Below, piece after piece: positions 1,320 through 63,524 of a stretch of 64,000 nt of DNA (position 1 is the stretch's first letter; each line of letters opens with the position of its first letter). The notes beneath the pieces were generated by a model. That model was not told where the DNA came from. It saw only the letters and a program-made list of their open reading frames with translations, and searched no databases. The position numbers and the translations under genes are program-made. The DNA comes from Aureimonas sp. OT7 (GTDB taxonomy: Bacteria > Pseudomonadota > Alphaproteobacteria > Rhizobiales > Rhizobiaceae). The stretch is taken from contig NZ_CP062167.1 of assembly GCF_014844055.1 (NCBI RefSeq), forward strand, positions 2,185,501-2,249,500. Direction: 5' to 3'.

Positions 1320-1726
1320 GCCTGTCCACCCTCTGCAAGCGGACGGCATTGGCTGCCGTGGCTGTCGTCGTGGCTGCGATACCGGCTGACGCAGCACGGC
1401 TGGAAAATCGTGTCGCCGTGTTTTCCGGGCTCGACAAGATCACCGGCCGGATCACCAGTTTCGACGCCTATGTGAACGAGACGGTCCAGTTCGGCACTCT
1501 GCAGGTGACGCCGCGCGTCTGCTACAGCCGCTCGCCGGACGAAGCGCCGAAGACCGACAGCTTCGTAGAGGTGGACGAGATCACCCTGGAGCGTGAGATC
1601 CGGCGTATCTTTACCGGGTGGATGTTTGCAGATTCGCCGGGCCTGAATGCCGTGGAGCATCCGGTCTACGATGTCTGGCTGAAAGATTGCCGCGACGATT
1701 CCAGCGTGCCGCCGCCGCAGGGCTGA
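1316..1726 (+). CDS. DUF2155 domain-containing periplasmic protein
   Basis: The frame starts with GTG overlapping the preceding stop (GTGA), giving 136 residues. A short N-terminal hydrophobic stretch ending at ADAA looks like a signal peptide. The body holds the DUF2155 features LDKITGRITSF, VCYSRSPDE, EVDE and the tail WMFADSPGLNAVEHPVYDVWL. Function is unknown; the family is almost confined to alphaproteobacteria and usually sits behind the NDUFA12 gene, as here. The two cysteines (VCYS and KDC) could form a disulfide in the periplasm, which is inference. The start was chosen for the four-base overlap and the signal peptide. Confidence 0.88.
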   Translation: MSLSTLCKRTALAAVAVVVAAIPADAARLENRVAVFSGLDKITGRITSFDAYVNETVQFGTLQVTPRVCYSRSPDEAPKTDSFVEVDEITLEREIRRIFTGWMFADSPGLNAVEHPVYDVWLKDCRDDSSVPPPQG

Positions 1727-1809
1727 CGGCCTTCCGGCACCGCTCGTTTCGGACCACTCGCTTTGGGCGAGGGGGCGGAAGCGCGGACGAAACCGCCCAC
1801 CGCCAACCT

Positions 1810-2082
1810 CTAATAGTAGTTCACTTCCCAATCCGCGAGGGCGTGCTGGATGCACTCCCTTGCGAGCTCGAGCCGCATCCGGTTGAGTTGCGACTGGCGG
1901 AGCTGCCAACGGCGCTCACTTGCGGTTTTCACCAGCTTGCGTGCGACGGTCAGCAGGTCTTCGGGAACGATTCTATGGGCGATGCCCGTGAATGCATCCA
2001 CCGGCAGGAGATAGCCGTCTTCGGTCTCGACGAGACGTCCGGGGATATGCCTCCATTCGCCGGTCTTGAACCGGACGTGCAT
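1810..2082 (-). CDS. hypothetical protein, 90 residues
   Basis: I do not recognise this gene. It has an ATG start with a GGAAG purine stretch upstream. The sequence opens with a compact segment (HVRFKTGEWRHIPG..ETEDGYLLPVDAF) followed by a charged helical part rich in Arg, Gln and Leu, ending NYY. No signal peptide or membrane segment is visible. It lies alone, convergent with the DUF2155 gene and divergent from the small-ORF array at 2.1 kb. It could be a lineage-restricted cytoplasmic protein. Confidence 0.5.
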   Translation of the reverse strand: MHVRFKTGEWRHIPGRLVETEDGYLLPVDAFTGIAHRIVPEDLLTVARKLVKTASERRWQLRQSQLNRMRLELARECIQHALADWEVNYY

Positions 2083-2127
2083 CAGTCTTCCGCAGGCGGA
2101 AGGAATGATGCAGACGGTGGAGGAAAT

Positions 2128-2187
2128 ATGTTAGAGGCTGGATTAGCCATGATGCTCCTGTTCCTTAGCTGTGAGCGTTATGGTTAG
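2128..2187 (+). CDS. candidate 19-residue hydrophobic small ORF
   Basis: A near-perfect ribosome binding site (GGAGGAAAT) directly precedes ATG at 2128. The 19 codons encode a peptide with a hydrophobic centre (AMMLLFL) and a short polar tail (SCERYG). The stop codon overlaps a strong hairpin at 2187-2221 (GGCCCG paired with CGGGCC, plus an inner GGGAG/CTCCC). The layout of binding site, tiny frame and hairpin resembles the three units that follow, but the peptide is not related to theirs. Whether it is translated is inference. Confidence 0.3.
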   Translation: MLEAGLAMMLLFLSCERYG

Positions 2188-2395
2188 GCCCGGTGTGGGA
2201 GCGGTAACTCCCCATCGGGCCGATTAGATTTATAGGAATAAAGTTGCAGGATGGCAATCGACCTCCTGTATTTTGCCTGCTACGAGCGTGGCATTGGGGC
2301 GAAGCAGAAAAGCGTTGCGCAGGCCCGACGCTGCCTTGGACGGTGAGCCTCCAAGGCTGAGGCAACAGGCCTGTCCTCGATCAGGAGTGAGAGCG

Positions 2396-2485
2396 ATGGT
2401 TCTACCAATCGTGATCACGCTACACATCAGAAAAGCCCGGAGCGGCTGGCAGGCCAAGCTCCGGATCATTTTCTTAACAAAGTAG
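2396..2485 (+). CDS. small ORF copy 1, 29-residue basic hydrophobic peptide
   Basis: ATG at 2396 follows AGGAGTGAGAGCG, a good ribosome binding site at normal spacing. The peptide starts MVLPIVITLHIRKARSGW, has a basic centre (HIRKAR..K..R) between two hydrophobic ends, and ends at TAG after 29 codons. Compared with copies 2 and 3 there are no indels, and many differences are synonymous (CCA/CCG, CTA/CTG, TTA/CTG, TTC/TTT) or conservative (I/F, I/V, A/T), which argues for coding. Function is unknown; a type I toxin, a leader peptide or a small membrane-active protein are all possible. Confidence 0.5.
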   Translation: MVLPIVITLHIRKARSGWQAKLRIIFLTK

Positions 2486-2491
2486 TGCAAG

Positions 2492-2518
2492 GTTCCTGGC
2501 TGTTAACGCACCCAGGGA
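2492..2518 (+). terminator. 3' hairpin of unit 1
   Basis: An eleven-pair stem with one mismatch joins GTTCCTGGCTG and CACCCAGGGAC across a TTAACG loop, seven bases after the small ORF stop. No uridine run follows, so it may protect the 3' end or mark processing rather than terminate transcription. The sequence differs from the hairpins of units 2 and 3 while the pairing is kept. Confidence 0.45.
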
Positions 2519-2750
2519 CACTCCCGACGATAATCGGCTTCCAATCCCCGATCAAGTCGATCAGTCGTCCGGCTGATATCAGATATAGGAATCGATGCGT
2601 CTTTTCGCTAAAGGCGATTGCGTCGGCGCGTCCTATGGGCGTCCGGCATCGAGGCGAAGCAGTACAGCGTTGCGCCAGCCCGACGCTGCCTTGGACGATG
2701 AGCCTCCAAGGCTGAGGCAACAGGCTTGTCCTCGATCAGGAGTGAGAGCG

Positions 2751-2840
2751 ATGGATCTACCGATCGTAATCACGCTGCACATCAGAAAAACCCGGAGCGG
2801 CTGGCGGGCCAAGCTCCGGATTCAATTTCTGACTATGTAG
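2751..2840 (+). CDS. small ORF copy 2, 29-residue basic hydrophobic peptide
   Basis: This copy has the same AGGAGTGAGAGCG binding site, ATG at 2751 and TAG after 29 codons. It differs from copy 1 at V2D, A14T, Q19R and in the tail (IQFLTM), with silent changes at several third positions. The internal CCGGAGC/GCTCCGG stem is unchanged. Its 3' hairpin (2846-2875) is the strongest of the three. I cannot assign a function. Confidence 0.5.
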   Translation: MDLPIVITLHIRKTRSGWRAKLRIQFLTM

Positions 2841-2845
2841 TGAAC

Positions 2846-2875
2846 GGCCCTCGGGTGTTAACGCACCCGGGGGCC
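2846..2875 (+). terminator. 3' hairpin of unit 2
   Basis: A twelve-pair stem (GGCCCTCGGGTG with CACCCGGGGGCC, one G-U pair) closes a TTAACG loop five bases after the small ORF stop. It is followed by ACTTCTGA rather than a uridine run. Confidence 0.5.
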
Positions 2876-3107
2876 ACTTCTGAAGATAGCGGCGCAGCGA
2901 GCCTCGATCAAGTGGCCCAAGATAATCATTCTGTTATTCGATATAGGATCGATGCACCGTTTCGCTAAAGGCGATTGCGTCGGTTCGTTCAATGGGCGGC
3001 TGGCATCGGGGCAAAGCAGTAAAGCGTTGCGCCAGCCCAACGCTGCCTTGGACGATGAGCCTCCAAGGCTGAGGCAACAGGCTTGTCGTCGATCAGGAGT
3101 GGGAGCG

Positions 3108-3197
3108 ATGGTTCTACCGTTCGTGATCACGCTACACATCAGAAAAACCCGGAGCGGCTGGCAGGCCAAGCTCCGGGTGATTATTCTGGTCAAGTAG
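3108..3197 (+). CDS. small ORF copy 3, 29-residue basic hydrophobic peptide
   Basis: ATG at 3108 is preceded by AGGAGTGGGAGCG, and the 29 codons end at TAG. The peptide keeps the LP..VITLHIRK.RSGW core, with I5F and a tail VIILVK whose hydrophobic character is kept although most of its codons have changed. A 3' hairpin follows at 3204-3231. The unit ends about 45 bases before the converging GST gene. Confidence 0.5.
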   Translation: MVLPFVITLHIRKTRSGWQAKLRVIILVK

Positions 3198-3203
3198 TGA
3201 AAA

Positions 3204-3231
3204 GCCCTCGGGTGTAATAGCACCCGGGGGC
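3204..3231 (+). terminator. 3' hairpin of unit 3
   Basis: An eleven-pair stem (GCCCTCGGGTG with CACCCGGGGGC) closes a TAATAG loop six bases after the small ORF stop and is followed by ACTTCTGACGATAAGC. It may also serve the converging GST gene. Confidence 0.5.
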
Positions 3232-3289
3232 ACTTCTGACGATAAGCGAAACGGCTCCGTCCATCAAGCCAGTGTTGCCCCACGTTCGG

Positions 3290-3886
3290 TCACGCCATAG
3301 GCTTCAATTCCTCGAACGCCGGATAGGACTTTGCGAACTCCTCCAGCCAGCGGACCAGATTCGGGTTCTCGCCTTCCCACTCACCGCCGAAACGGAGGGA
3401 CAACCATCCGAGATCTGCGGCCAGCGCGAAATGAGCAATATTCGGCTGATCGGGCAGGGCGGCAACTTCGCCATCCAGAACCTTCAAGGCACGCATCGCA
3501 CGGCCCCACTGCTTGTCCATCATCGGCTGGTAGCGCATTTCCTCCGGCCGGTAACGGACTTCGTACAGCCGAAGCTGCGCGCATTCCGTCGCGCCGTCGA
3601 TCAGCGATTCCGTCCGCTTAGCCTGTAGCCACGCGTCCATCGTTTGGGGAATCAGGAGATTTCCGCTGAGCCGGTCGAAATATTCGCAGATGACCTTGCT
3701 GTCGTGCACGGACGAGCCGTCATCGAGAAGGAGAACCGGAATCTTGCCGAGCGGGTTGGCCGCAATCAGCTCTGCCGGCGCGGAGCCGGTATCGGTGGAG
3801 ACGAGTTCCAGTTTCAGGTCGCAATGGTGCGCGGCCAGACGGACCTTCGATGCATAGGGCGAAGGCTTGGAATACAAAAGACGCAT
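3290..3886 (-). CDS. glutathione S-transferase family protein
   Basis: The 198 residues start with a thioredoxin-like N-terminal half (MRLLYSKPSPYASKVRLAAH, then NPLGKIPVLLLDDG and the glutathione-binding VHDSKVICEYFD with its Ser/Asp pair). The all-helical C-terminal domain follows. The likely catalytic residue is the serine or tyrosine near position 6-11. Family members conjugate glutathione to electrophiles in the cytoplasm; the substrate here cannot be told. It lies 24 bases from a secreted hypothetical gene transcribed the same way. Length is normal. Confidence 0.9.
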   Translation of the reverse strand: MRLLYSKPSPYASKVRLAAHHCDLKLELVSTDTGSAPAELIAANPLGKIPVLLLDDGSSVHDSKVICEYFDRLSGNLLIPQTMDAWLQAKRTESLIDGATECAQLRLYEVRYRPEEMRYQPMMDKQWGRAMRALKVLDGEVAALPDQPNIAHFALAADLGWLSLRFGGEWEGENPNLVRWLEEFAKSYPAFEELKPMA

Positions 3887-3910
3887 GATGCTTCCCGATT
3901 GAAAGCCGCG

Positions 3911-4384
3911 TCAGAAGCGACGCAGCGATTGGCAGTTGGCGCCGTAGACGCGCCAGGCATCATAACCCAGGAAACAGCCCTCCGCACGCCAGCCGACGCC
4001 CGCAAAGCCCATGGGATATTCGATGACGTAGTAGACGTTGTTGGCCGTGGTGCCGCCCTTGTAGTCGCCGCCGGTCACCAGGGCTTGCCCCTGGCAGTAA
4101 CGGCGCTCGACGGTGCGCAAGCCGATGGCGGGGAAGTATGCCTTCTCGTGGAGCCCGGCAAATTCCATCACGGCCAGCGGACGGCCCTGGACGTTGGGCG
4201 CCCCATATTCGAACTGGTCCTCGATCTTCGCAAGGACGCGAGGGTCGTTGCACGCCGGCACATTGCTGCGTACCACGACGGCCGTCTGTGCCTCCGGCAC
4301 GGCGCGAAAATAATCGGCGGCCTGAGCGGCCCCCGCCGCAAGGCTGGCCATCACGCTTGTCGCGGCCAGAATACCGAGCTTCAT
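3911..4384 (-). CDS. secreted hypothetical protein, 157 residues
   Basis: A clear signal peptide (MKLGILAATSVMASLAAGAAQAA) precedes a mature part with six cysteines or fewer spaced in ACNDP, YCQG, GCFLG and NCQS, which could form disulfides in the periplasm. Tyrosine and glycine are frequent (GGDYKGGTTANNVYYVIEYPMGF). I do not recognise a named domain; similar short periplasmic proteins occur in Hyphomicrobiales. It lies upstream of the GST gene on the same strand, with a 24-base gap. Confidence 0.75.
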   Translation of the reverse strand: MKLGILAATSVMASLAAGAAQAADYFRAVPEAQTAVVVRSNVPACNDPRVLAKIEDQFEYGAPNVQGRPLAVMEFAGLHEKAYFPAIGLRTVERRYCQGQALVTGGDYKGGTTANNVYYVIEYPMGFAGVGWRAEGCFLGYDAWRVYGANCQSLRRF

Positions 4385-4437
4385 GACTGTTTCGTCCCCT
4401 CAGGCGGTATGAGATATGCAACCTCTGGTAACATAGC

Positions 4438-5286
4438 TCATATGCGCTCCGCCGCCAGCACATTGATGCCACAATGCGCCGTGGACGAACGGGAGAGGAC
4501 GGGGAGCAACACTTCCATGATGGTTCGGGCTTCCCCTGCGAAGCCGTAGGGCGGGTTTATGACGACCAGCCCGGAGCCGACGAGCCTGTCTTCCGCACCG
4601 AAATCCTCGCGCAGGAAGTCGAGCGCCAGGATATCGGGTATGAGGCTGGCCGACAGCGCCTCGTGGAATTGGCCGACATCCGATTTTCGCTTGATCGGAT
4701 ACCAGACCGCGAACGTCCCCCCCGCCCAGCGGCGCACGGCCTTCTGCAGATGATCCACGATGCGTTGGAACTCGCCCGCCTCCTCGAAGGGAGGGTCGAT
4801 CAGCACCATTCCGCGCTTTTCCTTTGGCGGCAGATGGGCACCGAGCGCAAGCCAGCCATCCAGGTGAATGGCTTTCACCTGCACGTCGCCGGCAAATGTA
4901 TCGGCCAGCGCCCTGGCGTCCTCCGGATGCAGTTCGTAGGCCGACAGCCTGTCCTGAGGGCGCAGCAGGCGACGGATCAGCATCGGCGAGCCTGGATAGG
5001 CCCTGTGCCCGGCCTCGCTGTCGACCGTTTCGACAGCACCGGCATAGGCGGCGAGGAGCGGGTGCGAACGCGCGCTGCTCGCCATGAACAGGTCGATGCC
5101 GGCTTTCGCCTCGCCGGTGCGCAACGCCGCTTCGGACGCAAGGTCGTACACACCGATGCCGGCATGGGTATCGTAGACGCGGAACGCCTTGTCCTTGCGC
5201 TTGAAGCTTTCCACAAGCCGAGCCAGAAGCGCGTGCTTGTGCACGTCGGCGAAATTTCCCGCATGGAATGCGTGTCGATAATTCAA
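4438..5286 (-). CDS. rlmJ: 23S rRNA (adenine(2030)-N6)-methyltransferase RlmJ
   Basis: The 282 residues begin NYRHAFHAGNFADVHKH, matching the RlmJ N-terminus. The S-adenosylmethionine fold follows (YDTHAGIGVYDL), with the catalytic DPPF motif in VLIDPPFEEAGEF and the late segment GSGLVVINPPYGF. RlmJ methylates A2030 of 23S rRNA. The frame is open for another 78 codons upstream, but family length and alignment point to a TTG start at 5286; an ATG at 5364 is the alternative. It is divergent from the old yellow enzyme gene. Confidence 0.93.
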   Translation of the reverse strand: MNYRHAFHAGNFADVHKHALLARLVESFKRKDKAFRVYDTHAGIGVYDLASEAALRTGEAKAGIDLFMASSARSHPLLAAYAGAVETVDSEAGHRAYPGSPMLIRRLLRPQDRLSAYELHPEDARALADTFAGDVQVKAIHLDGWLALGAHLPPKEKRGMVLIDPPFEEAGEFQRIVDHLQKAVRRWAGGTFAVWYPIKRKSDVGQFHEALSASLIPDILALDFLREDFGAEDRLVGSGLVVINPPYGFAGEARTIMEVLLPVLSRSSTAHCGINVLAAERI

Positions 5287-62791: not shown

Positions 62792-62930
62792 GACGCCCCT
62801 TATCGGGGAGTAGCTACCGTTGCGAAACGGGGGCGCGTCAACACACTCGTGCACGAGCACGTGGCGCGTTCAGCCGAACAGGCCCAGCAAGACCGTGGCA
62901 ACCGTTTCACCGCTTGCGGACAGGTGCGAC
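62792..62930 (+). promoter_or_regulatory. yybP-ykoY (manganese) riboswitch upstream of mntP
   Basis: The leader begins with a CCCC/GGGG stem (about 62796-62808) and the hallmark GGGGAGTAG at 62805-62813, then internal stems, and CAAGACC at 62888-62894 with a closing CCGCTTGCGG region. This order matches the Mn2+-sensing yybP-ykoY class. It lies 37 bases before mntP, a known target of this riboswitch. The call rests on motifs and position, not on a covariance search. Confidence 0.75.
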
Positions 62931-62966
62931 GGGCGCCCGGTTCCGCATGTCCGTTGGGTTGTTCTC

Positions 62967-63524
62967 ATGTCTCCCTTTACCATTGCCGTACTCGCAGTCA
63001 GCATGTCAGTCGACGCCTTTGCCGTCTCGGTTGGACGCGGTGCTGCGATCGGGCAGCCCCGCTTTTCCGAAACCCTTCGCACAGAAGCGGTTTTCGGTAT
63101 TGTTGAGGCAATCACGCCGGTCATCGGTTGGGCTGCCGGCGTTGCCGCAAGCAGCTTTGTCGAGGCAGTCGATCACTGGATTGCATTTGGACTGCTCGGC
63201 GCCGTCGGCCTGCACATGCTCTTCTCCGCCCTTGTCAAGAAGGAGCAAGATGCGCCGGTCGGACGATCGATGACCGTTCTTCTCGCGACGGCTATCGGTA
63301 CGAGCCTAGACGCTATGGTCGTGGGTGTGTCGCTGGCGTTTCTCGACGTCAACATCGTGGTCATCGCAATCGCGATCGGTCTGGCAACGTTTCTCATGTC
63401 ATCCGGCGGCATGCTCGTCGGCCGCCTGATCGGAGAACGGTTCGGCCGGATCGCGGAGGGCATGTCAGGCGTTGCCCTTGTGTTGCTGGGCGCATCAATC
63501 CTGATCGAGCACCTCAGCGCATAA
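62967..63524 (+). CDS. mntP: manganese efflux pump MntP
   Basis: The 185-residue membrane protein has six hydrophobic helices and the MntP signatures [16 protein letters not shown] and [19 protein letters not shown] with acidic metal-binding residues. It exports Mn2+ across the inner membrane. ATG at 62967 fits family length. The manganese riboswitch upstream should raise expression when Mn2+ is high. Confidence 0.95.

What the first reader, a model, noticed from the sequence alone, without database searches (positions are those of the whole stretch)
2280..3235. Tandem array of three paralogous 29-codon reading frames with conserved RNA structure
Three ~355-base units each encode a peptide with the core LP[IF]VITLHIRK.RSGW from an identical AGGAGT.GGAGCG-type binding site. 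The frames have no indels and stop at the same codon. Many differences are synonymous or conservative, most plainly in the tails, which is the pattern of selection on a peptide. Each unit also has a leader hairpin and a 3' hairpin. Tandem long repeats encoding ~30-residue basic or hydrophobic peptides recall type I toxin loci (Ldr, Ibs), but no relationship to a named family is visible. A regulatory leader peptide array is the alternative.
Basis: partly seen in the sequence, partly recalled or inferred. Interest (0 to 1): 0.78.

Follow-up and report, generated by a model that had tools for sequence, protein, structure and literature searches.

The report
Putative rhizobial type I toxin–antitoxin array
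Three repeated mini-genes each seem to encode a 29-residue beta-hairpin peptide together with a small opposite-strand RNA that would silence it, an apparently undescribed toxin–antitoxin-like family of the rhizobial order and of some of its plasmids and phages.

Summary
In detail: three ~356-nt repeats (window 2215-3270) with 29-codon frames, in an Aureimonas genome that carries two more copies. The unit belongs to a family without a match in Rfam, Pfam, NCBIfam, PHROGs or PADLOC here, present in seven families of Hyphomicrobiales (59 of 297 genomes of the own family), on plasmids and in phages. The predicted asRNA is ~90 nt. Best reading: a type I toxin–antitoxin-like module that works like AapA/IsoA or Hok/Sok but matches no searched family, with a beta-hairpin peptide and the antitoxin's terminator embedded in the toxin's codons. 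Toxicity and asRNA expression are inferred, not shown.

The parts
2215..3270 (+). tandem array of three units (about 356 nt each)
   Evidence: orthologous locus in A. altamirensis DSM 21988 has four units
2293..2382 (+). unit 1: branched 5' RNA domain (P1 enclosing three hairpins)
   Evidence: covariance models match 2293-2389 (R1) and 2293-2528 (R2); covariation
2384..2388 (+). unit 1: Shine-Dalgarno (GGAGT), paired in the model with the 3' anti-SD
2396..2485 (+). unit 1: 29-codon peptide frame MVLPIVITLHIRKARSGWQAKLRIIFLTK
2431..2520 (-). unit 1: predicted ~90-nt antisense RNA (inferred antitoxin)
   Evidence: promoter and terminator geometry
2437..2464 (.). unit 1: hairpin inside the ORF = antisense terminator stem-loop
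2492..2518 (+). unit 1: 3' hairpin
   Evidence: helix 12 (11 of 11 pairs have changes on both sides)
2519..2524 (+). unit 1: anti-SD CACTCC
2527..2556 (-). unit 1: antisense promoter (-35 CTTGAT 2556-2551, 17 nt spacing, -10 TATCGT 2532-2527)
2648..2737 (+). unit 2: branched 5' RNA domain
2751..2840 (+). unit 2: peptide frame MDLPIVITLHIRKTRSGWRAKLRIQFLTM
2786..2876 (-). unit 2: predicted antisense RNA
2792..2819 (.). unit 2: ORF hairpin / antisense terminator
2846..2880 (+). unit 2: 3' hairpin and anti-SD (CACTTC 2875-2880)
2883..2912 (-). unit 2: antisense promoter (CTTGAT, 17 nt, TATCTT)
3005..3094 (+). unit 3: branched 5' RNA domain
3108..3197 (+). unit 3: peptide frame MVLPFVITLHIRKTRSGWQAKLRVIILVK
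3142..3232 (-). unit 3: predicted antisense RNA
3149..3176 (.). unit 3: ORF hairpin / antisense terminator
3203..3236 (+). unit 3: 3' hairpin and anti-SD (CACTTC 3231-3236)
3239..3268 (-). unit 3: antisense promoter (CTTGAT, 17 nt, TATCGT)

Best explanation
Each unit is a self-contained type I toxin-antitoxin-like module. SHOWN by sequence: a small mRNA-like unit with a covarying 5' domain, a peptide frame under purifying selection, a Shine-Dalgarno complementary to a conserved anti-SD beyond the 3' hairpin, and a convergent antisense transcription unit whose promoter lies just past the anti-SD and whose Rho-independent terminator is the hairpin plus A-run inside the peptide frame. INFERRED: (1) the full-length mRNA folds with its SD shut by its own 3' end and is translated only after processing or refolding; (2) a well-promoted ~90-nt asRNA covers the second half of the frame, the stop, the 3' hairpin and part of the anti-SD, and removes the mRNA, probably through RNase III, since it does not reach the SD or start codon; (3) when the asRNA disappears (loss of plasmid or phage, stress) the longer-lived mRNA yields a cationic amphipathic beta-hairpin peptide that harms the cell, most likely at the membrane; (4) arrays grow and decay by duplication and loss of units.
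For: Covariation: 93.3% of 7513 cells paired, score 0.513 against 0.182 in shuffles and at most 0.082 when slid. Coding: dN/dS clearly below 1 only in this frame; 119 of 124 units keep the motif-bearing frame. Antisense promoter: 117 of 125 distinct units score at least 8 of 12 on the antisense strand, 11 of 125 on the sense strand of the same stretch; -10 within -6 to +8 of the unit end in 116 of 125; spacing 17 in 97 of 125. Repeated on 54 further units (other families, plasmids, phages, one of family f1): 48 against 3. Antisense terminator: TTTT beside the stem in 87 of 126 on the antisense side, 3 of 126 on the sense side; at the two codons that make the run, Arg is AGA/AGG in 63 of 80, against 7.4% in 492 neighbouring ORFs and 49 of 359 elsewhere in the peptides. 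Predicted asRNA length 5-95% 85-94 nt in the 115 units with a promoter in place. Amino-acid changes follow the hairpin pairing: Ser at W-2 goes with Leu at W+4 in 23 of 28, Thr with Val/Ile in 70 of 76. Antisense promoter more regular than the sense one: mean best scores 8.67 (control strand 6.59) and 7.46 (control strand 6.85). Matches in 44 plasmid and 14 phage records at E up to 1; all 8 fetched ones match the RNA model. No conserved neighbour. Beta-hairpin. Copy number varies at the orthologous place, 3 against 4.
Against: No expression, toxicity or ribosome data. At a single locus the antisense signals are modest: a generic E. coli-type scan of 2180-3320 reported one promoter-like and one terminator-like site, both elsewhere and as many as chance gives (it demands 9 of 12 to TTGACA/TATAAT and loops of 3-8); the case is comparative. 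The promoter consensus was chosen after the pattern was seen in the first set (the second set answers this in part). The sense promoter is poorly defined and no sense-strand terminator was found. The peptide is not the transmembrane helix usual for type I toxins. Some frames are broken (5 of 124), and a set in family f41 keeps the RNA but lacks the Trp or a recognised frame. dN/dS is higher in the hairpin part (0.46-0.64), as an RNA constraint would make it. Covariation counts lean towards the structure because the alignment was fitted to a model. Lys AAA is high throughout the peptides, not only at the run.
Confidence: 0.77

Rival explanations
1. A dual-function or regulatory sRNA locus: the peptide is a small non-toxic protein (membrane modulator or signal) whose synthesis is set by the antisense RNA; no addiction or toxicity.
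For: All sequence evidence for sense and antisense transcripts and for coding holds equally. Chromosomal copies are common, and some sit beside the same leuS-like gene in four genera.
Against: Tandem multiplication and decaying copies, plasmid and phage carriage without conserved partners, and a more regular antisense than sense promoter fit a toxin better. None of this is decisive.
Confidence: 0.14
2. A riboswitch or attenuator with a leader peptide that controls a downstream gene.
For: Aptamer-like branched 5' domain directly before the SD with conserved loops.
Against: The nearest downstream ORF of at least 90 aa is on the same strand in only 52 of 138 loci, and the largest homologous neighbour cluster has 12 members among 725 ORFs of 142 loci. 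Units follow one another in arrays. No Rfam match at gathering score and only weak ones below it.
Confidence: 0.03
3. A mobile repeat (MITE-like) that carries a vestigial frame.
For: Several copies per genome, up to nine leader matches in one; arrays; some copies lie close to contig ends.
Against: Frame under purifying selection; no inverted repeats of 12 nt or more bounding the unit in window 1500-4500; RNA helices covary.
Confidence: 0.03
4. A bacteriocin-like or anti-phage beta-hairpin peptide kept silent by its antisense RNA and released by phage takeover.
For: Cationic amphipathic beta-hairpin pattern; phage and plasmid carriage.
Against: No PADLOC match for four peptides; no conserved neighbour that could be an immunity or export gene; no signal peptide or cysteine pair evident by eye (no tool was run for this).
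Confidence: 0.03

Closest known systems
AapA/IsoA type I toxin-antitoxin family of Helicobacter (Epsilonproteobacteria)
   Same: Short mRNA (aapA3 full-length 225 nt, PMC6733600, passages read) shut by a 5'-3' long-distance SD/anti-SD pairing; small antisense RNA; several loci per genome; short cationic peptide (size and charge recalled).
   Different: No peptide or RNA match found in the searched libraries (AapA itself was not compared); IsoA covers the 5' part of the mRNA (recalled), here the asRNA covers the 3' half and ends inside the frame; beta-hairpin rather than helix; different class of bacteria.
Hok/Sok
   Same: Full-length mRNA needs 3' processing before translation (PMC6733600, passage); plasmid carriage and antisense RNA (recalled).
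   Different: Peptide shorter, no Pfam match; asRNA at the 3' side; an overlapping mok-like frame was not looked for.
Ldr/Rdl, Ibs/Sib, ZorO/OrzO
   Same: Tandem duplicated small peptides with RNA antitoxins (PMC8309996 passages in part, the rest recalled).
   Different: Those peptides are hydrophobic transmembrane helices (PMC8309996 passages); no Pfam or NCBIfam match for this one.
TxpA/RatA, BsrG/SR4, Fst/RNAII (3'-overlapping type I pairs)
   Same: Convergent antisense gene overlapping the 3' end of the toxin gene (recalled); for TxpA/RatA, RNase III degradation instead of blocking ribosome binding (PMC12390103 passage).
   Different: Gram-positive; helical peptides (recalled); here the antisense terminator lies in the middle of the frame.

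Membership tests
type I toxin-antitoxin system | Small frame (under about 60 codons) under selection as a peptide | tested here: met
   116 of 119 motif-bearing frames are 26-31 residues; dN/dS
type I toxin-antitoxin system | Antisense RNA gene opposite or beside the toxin mRNA (sequence signals) | tested here: met
   Promoter 117 of 125, second set 48 of 54; terminator T-run 87 of 126. Signals only, no transcript seen
type I toxin-antitoxin system | Antisense RNA is made and silences the toxin mRNA | not testable with these tools
   Needs RNA-seq, Northern blot and promoter mutants
type I toxin-antitoxin system | Peptide is toxic when made without the antisense RNA | not testable with these tools
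   Needs induction experiment
type I toxin-antitoxin system | Toxin mRNA structured so that the SD is shut (common, not universal) | tested here: met
   SD/anti-SD helices 6 and 7: 96.0 and 92.6% of cells paired; prediction only
membrane type I toxins (Hok, Ldr, Ibs, TisB, Fst, AapA) | Hydrophobic alpha-helical transmembrane peptide (PMC8309996 passages) | tested here: not met
   i,i+2 alternation in 116 peptides; AlphaFold strands 6-15 and 18-27, pLDDT 84.9
named toxin families in Pfam, NCBIfam, PHROGs, PADLOC | Profile match | tested here: not met
   0 families for 4 peptides in each library at E up to 10
known RNA families (Rfam 15) | Match at gathering score | tested here: not met
   None on the unit or on nine loci with relatives
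AapA/IsoA | Direct sequence or covariance-model homology with AapA mRNAs | not tested
   No AapA sequence was fetched
riboswitch or leader peptide | Same regulated gene downstream | tested here: not met

The most novel reading that the evidence does not exclude
An undescribed order-wide type I toxin-antitoxin superfamily of Hyphomicrobiales in which the toxin is a cationic beta-hairpin peptide instead of a transmembrane helix, and the antitoxin RNA's terminator is written into the toxin's own turn codons (K-[KR]-T-R-[ST]-[GS]-W ... [LV]-R-V), so that RNA pairing forces linked amino-acid changes (Ser with Leu in 23 of 28, Thr with Val/Ile in 70 of 76 peptides) across the two strands of the hairpin.
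Probability: 0.6. Interest if true: 0.85.

Novelty: new variant of a known kind. Interest (0 to 1): 0.78.

Why it matters
No type I toxin-antitoxin family of Alphaproteobacteria turned up in the listings of eight paper searches (open-licence PubMed Central only, long lists cut at 15-20 papers). One paper, PMC5521070 (passages), did screen sRNA frames of S. meliloti among other species and predicted new type I toxins; its supplements could not be opened, so a member of this family may be among them. If the reading is true, a multi-copy family without annotation in the records seen sits in symbionts and plant-associated bacteria and on their plasmids and phages, and bears on plasmid maintenance, phage interaction and stress in rhizobia. 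It is also a very compact case of overlapping code: one stretch of DNA is at once the toxin's turn and second strand, an mRNA hairpin, and the antitoxin's terminator. A beta-hairpin would be unusual among membrane-type type I toxins, which PMC8309996 (passages) describes as all helical.

Tried and rejected
Weak Rfam matches on the unit (His_leader and others, all far below gathering) rejected as hairpin look-alikes. Matches outside the order: the one R3 hit in another class (L254, 38.7 bits) is the 3' end of a dnaK-like gene (by sequence look) with its terminator, L257 lies in a longer unrelated frame, L256 has a partial peptide match and no RNA match; none is counted as a member. This also shows that model E-values near 1e-7 can be wrong. 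IMG/VR: the Aureimonas-only peptide alignment gave no relative, and one pattern hit had no model match, so phage carriage rests on INPHARED records. The leader-peptide idea was tested by neighbours and dropped. The generic promoter/terminator scan gave nothing useful. Structure searches against fold libraries were not made: a lone 30-residue hairpin would match too much. Rows dropped: one overlapping partial unit (L027:2913); two degenerate units (L023:3765 without start, L028:5497 without 5' domain) from the alignments; one weak opposite-strand match (L241:3473-3669) before the counts; exact repeats counted once; units with promoter score under 8 or out of place left out of the asRNA lengths (115 kept); frames of 34 or more residues left out. 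and one search use peptides chosen by an R-x-x-W motif, so that Trp and Arg are invariant there by selection. Not every place listed was fetched: weaker ones and a few at contig ends were left out, so the 124 units and 126 are those found in 94 sources.

Full report
WHAT IS THERE. Three direct repeats of 284 nt stand at 2236, 2591 and 2948, spacing 355 and 357. Each holds a 29-codon frame after an AGGAGTG(A/G)GAGCG ribosome-binding site. Two more units lie at 1.38 Mb on the other strand; one of them has lost the frame by a 2-nt deletion at an A-run, and an IS630-like transposase frame (named by sequence look, not searched) lies between the two. The orthologous place in A. altamirensis DSM 21988 has four units, the last with its start region deleted.

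A FAMILY, NOT A LOCAL REPEAT. DNA comparison reaches 7 of 61 genomes, own genome and one weak 31-nt match included, all of the same genus. A covariance model of the leader (R1) found matches in 59 of 297 genomes of the family and 27 of 109 genera, up to nine per genome; neighbouring units in the fetched loci mostly stand 306-404 nt apart (34 of 38 spacings). A whole-unit model (R2) matched 13 of 21 genomes of the genus. A model from 126 units (R3) matched 25 of 397 genomes drawn from the order, in seven families and 16 of 142 genera, but only the own genome among 289 drawn from the class, and the own genome plus one false positive among 249 drawn from the phylum. The peptide profile found the own genome plus two unconvincing partial matches among 190 drawn from the class. 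The large RNA searches use stricter filters that lose weak matches, so absence elsewhere is provisional. tblastn with a composite family peptide at E up to 1 found 44 plasmid records (Sinorhizobium, Roseibium, Labrenzia, Agrobacterium, Rhizobium, Microvirga, Ancylobacter and others; 40 listed) and 14 phage records (Rhizobium and Ochrobactrum phages and two unclassified ones). In the listed rows no feature is annotated under the peptide match (some records carry no annotation). All 8 records fetched match R3, two of them twice. Six of these stretches have annotation and show the unit between unrelated genes, in one Agrobacterium plasmid about 0.5 kb from a replication protein C gene; in two, a hypothetical CDS overlaps the leader. 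Two records had no features in the stretch.

THE RNA. Over 126 distinct aligned units, 93.3% of 7513 cells form standard pairs; the covariation score is 0.513 against 0.182 in shuffles and 0.061-0.082 when the partner is slid; 53 of 62 pairs have changes on both sides. The parts are: a long closing stem (P1) around three hairpins; a helix between the Shine-Dalgarno and a conserved CACTCC directly after the 3' hairpin (helices 6 and 7, 96.0 and 92.6% paired); a hairpin inside the frame (helix 10, 97.1%; two of its pairs switch between orientations, 84/41 and 60/41 units); and a 3' hairpin in which all 11 pairs have changes on both sides. The alignment was fitted to a model built from the Aureimonas copies, so these counts lean towards the structure; an unfitted alignment of 18 units gave the same main helices. 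Folded singly, the leader beats shuffles clearly in three of four examples and not in the window's unit 2 (z = -0.26).

THE PEPTIDE. 119 of 124 units keep an ATG frame with the R-x-x-W motif; 116 of these are 26-31 residues long and three run on. Pairwise dN/dS over the N-terminal half, outside the hairpin, is 0.32, 0.41 and 0.44 in three identity bins; over the hairpin part 0.46, 0.64 and 0.54; over the whole frame 0.40, 0.52 and 0.48. The N-terminal half read in the other two frames gives 0.91 and 1.75. Aligned on the Trp of the motif by which they were chosen, 116 peptides are hydrophobic at -13, -11, -9, -7 (94-99%) and at +2, +4, +6, +8 (97-100%), with mostly polar residues between and a basic turn K-[KR]-T-R-[TS]-[GS]; median net charge is +5. 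AlphaFold2 on 15 Aureimonas sequences gives two strands, residues 6-15 and 18-27, mean pLDDT 84.9, pTM 0.35. No match in Pfam, NCBIfam, PHROGs or PADLOC (four peptides each) or in PDB sequences. In the second set a strict automatic rule finds the frame in 36 of 54 units. Of the other 18, several differ by one residue of the rule, two show the frame under the looser rule, and a group in family f41 has no recognised frame or lacks the Trp. Family f11 carries, beside ordinary forms, a divergent one, M..RRWKLEVSL(A/T)K.ADRW..TVRI.F, with the same alternation by eye.

THE ANTISENSE GENE. Right after the anti-SD, the reverse strand reads CTTG(A/C/G)N - 17 nt - TA(T)NNT. Scored against CTTGAC-N16-18-TATAAT in a 72-nt stretch, 117 of 125 distinct units reach 8 of 12 on the antisense strand, 11 of 125 on the sense strand of the same stretch; means are 8.67, 6.59 and 6.95 for antisense, sense and shuffled; the -10 lies within -6 to +8 nt of the unit end in 116 of 125 and the spacing is 17 in 97 of 125. 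I chose this consensus (alphaproteobacterial sigma70, recalled) after seeing the sequences, so I repeated the test on 54 units from other families, plasmids and phages (one is of family f1): 48 against 3, position within -3 to +3 in 50. The hairpin inside the frame is followed on the antisense side by TTTT in 87 of 126 units, on the sense side in 3 of 126. Codon choice shows selection for the run: at its two codons Arg is AGA/AGG in 63 of 80 cases, against 7.4% in 492 neighbouring ORFs and 49 of 359 elsewhere in the peptides; Lys is AAA in 89 of 131 against 22% in neighbouring ORFs, though AAA is also high elsewhere in the peptides, 34 of 62. Protein changes follow RNA pairing: Ser two before the Trp goes with Leu four after it in 23 of 28 peptides, Thr with Val or Ile in 70 of 76 and with Leu in 2 of 76 (related sequences, so not independent events). 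From promoter to T-run the predicted antisense RNA is 90 nt (median of the 115 units with promoter in place; 5-95% 85-94, range 36-109); the four examples printed fold into a 5' hairpin and a terminator hairpin with a U-tail, one of them with an extra small stem. In the window these RNAs would be 2520-2431, 2876-2786 and 3232-3142 on the minus strand. A generic scan with E. coli rules does not report them, so a single locus would not have shown this.

HOW IT PROBABLY WORKS. Shown: signals, structure, selection. Inferred: an mRNA whose SD is shut by its own 3' end, as described for AapA mRNAs and mentioned for hok (PMC6733600, passages); an asRNA that covers the second half of the frame to the anti-SD and so cannot block initiation directly, leaving RNase III decay as the likely route, as stated for TxpA/RatA and YonT/SR6 (PMC12390103, passage); a cationic amphipathic beta-hairpin that acts on membranes when the asRNA is lost. 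The sense promoter is less regular: mean best score 7.46 against 6.85 on the control strand, and 6.85 against 5.99 in shuffles when held to its expected place, as expected if the antitoxin is made in excess.

ALTERNATIVES. A leader peptide or riboswitch needs a partner gene: among 725 neighbouring ORFs of 142 loci the largest homologous cluster has 12 members in four genera (leuS-like by sequence look; nine upstream, three downstream), and the nearest downstream ORF is on the same strand in 52 of 138. A non-toxic small protein under antisense control remains open and is the main rival.

NOVELTY. Eight paper searches in open-licence PubMed Central listed no alphaproteobacterial type I system and nothing resembling this unit; the first three were narrow (1, 1 and 0 papers), longer lists were cut (15 of 68, 20 of 59, 20 of 57), and subscription papers are not held. 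I read passages only of PMC5521070, PMC5082802, PMC12390103, PMC6733600, PMC8309996 and PMC11228461; other papers were seen as listings. PMC5521070 screened S. meliloti among others for coding sRNAs and new type I toxins, and its supplements were not open to me, so an earlier prediction of one member cannot be excluded. [quoted passage not shown] this peptide does not look like one. I therefore file it as a new variant of a known kind (works like a type I toxin-antitoxin system; membership unproven until toxicity and the asRNA are shown), with the embedded terminator and the beta-hairpin as its new features.

Noticed in passing
window 62793-62978 (+): Manganese (yybP-ykoY) riboswitch, Rfam 55.6 bits, overlapping the start of an MntP-like frame that ends at 63524 (gene name by sequence look). 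Ordinary.
   Followed up: partly
L022 3316-4371 (own genome about 1.382 Mb): IS630-like transposase frames lie between the two other units of this genome, suggesting that an insertion split an array.
   Followed up: partly
L028 5634-5818: A unit with an intact peptide frame and 3' part whose 5' domain is missing: frame kept, leader lost.
   Followed up: no
L226, L227, L248-L251 (family f41): A divergent set that keeps the RNA and the antisense promoter but lacks the Trp or a recognised frame; may be a sub-type or an RNA-only derivative.
   Followed up: partly
family f11 units (L214-L223, L243, L247): Divergent peptide M..RRWKLEVSL(A/T)K.ADRW..TVRI.F with the same alternation; two of these 12 loci (L214, L216) hold arrays of three and two units.
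   Followed up: partly
L030, L076 and other loci: Some units sit next to a leuS-like gene in four genera (12 neighbours), a possibly vertically inherited place.
   Followed up: no
L179 (MW462191.1), L181 (MN988506.1), L180 (KY417925.1): Phage copies: two units between portal and terminase genes, one near the end of a 117-kb Rhizobium phage map, one inside an Ochrobactrum phage; the peptide is not annotated.
   Followed up: partly
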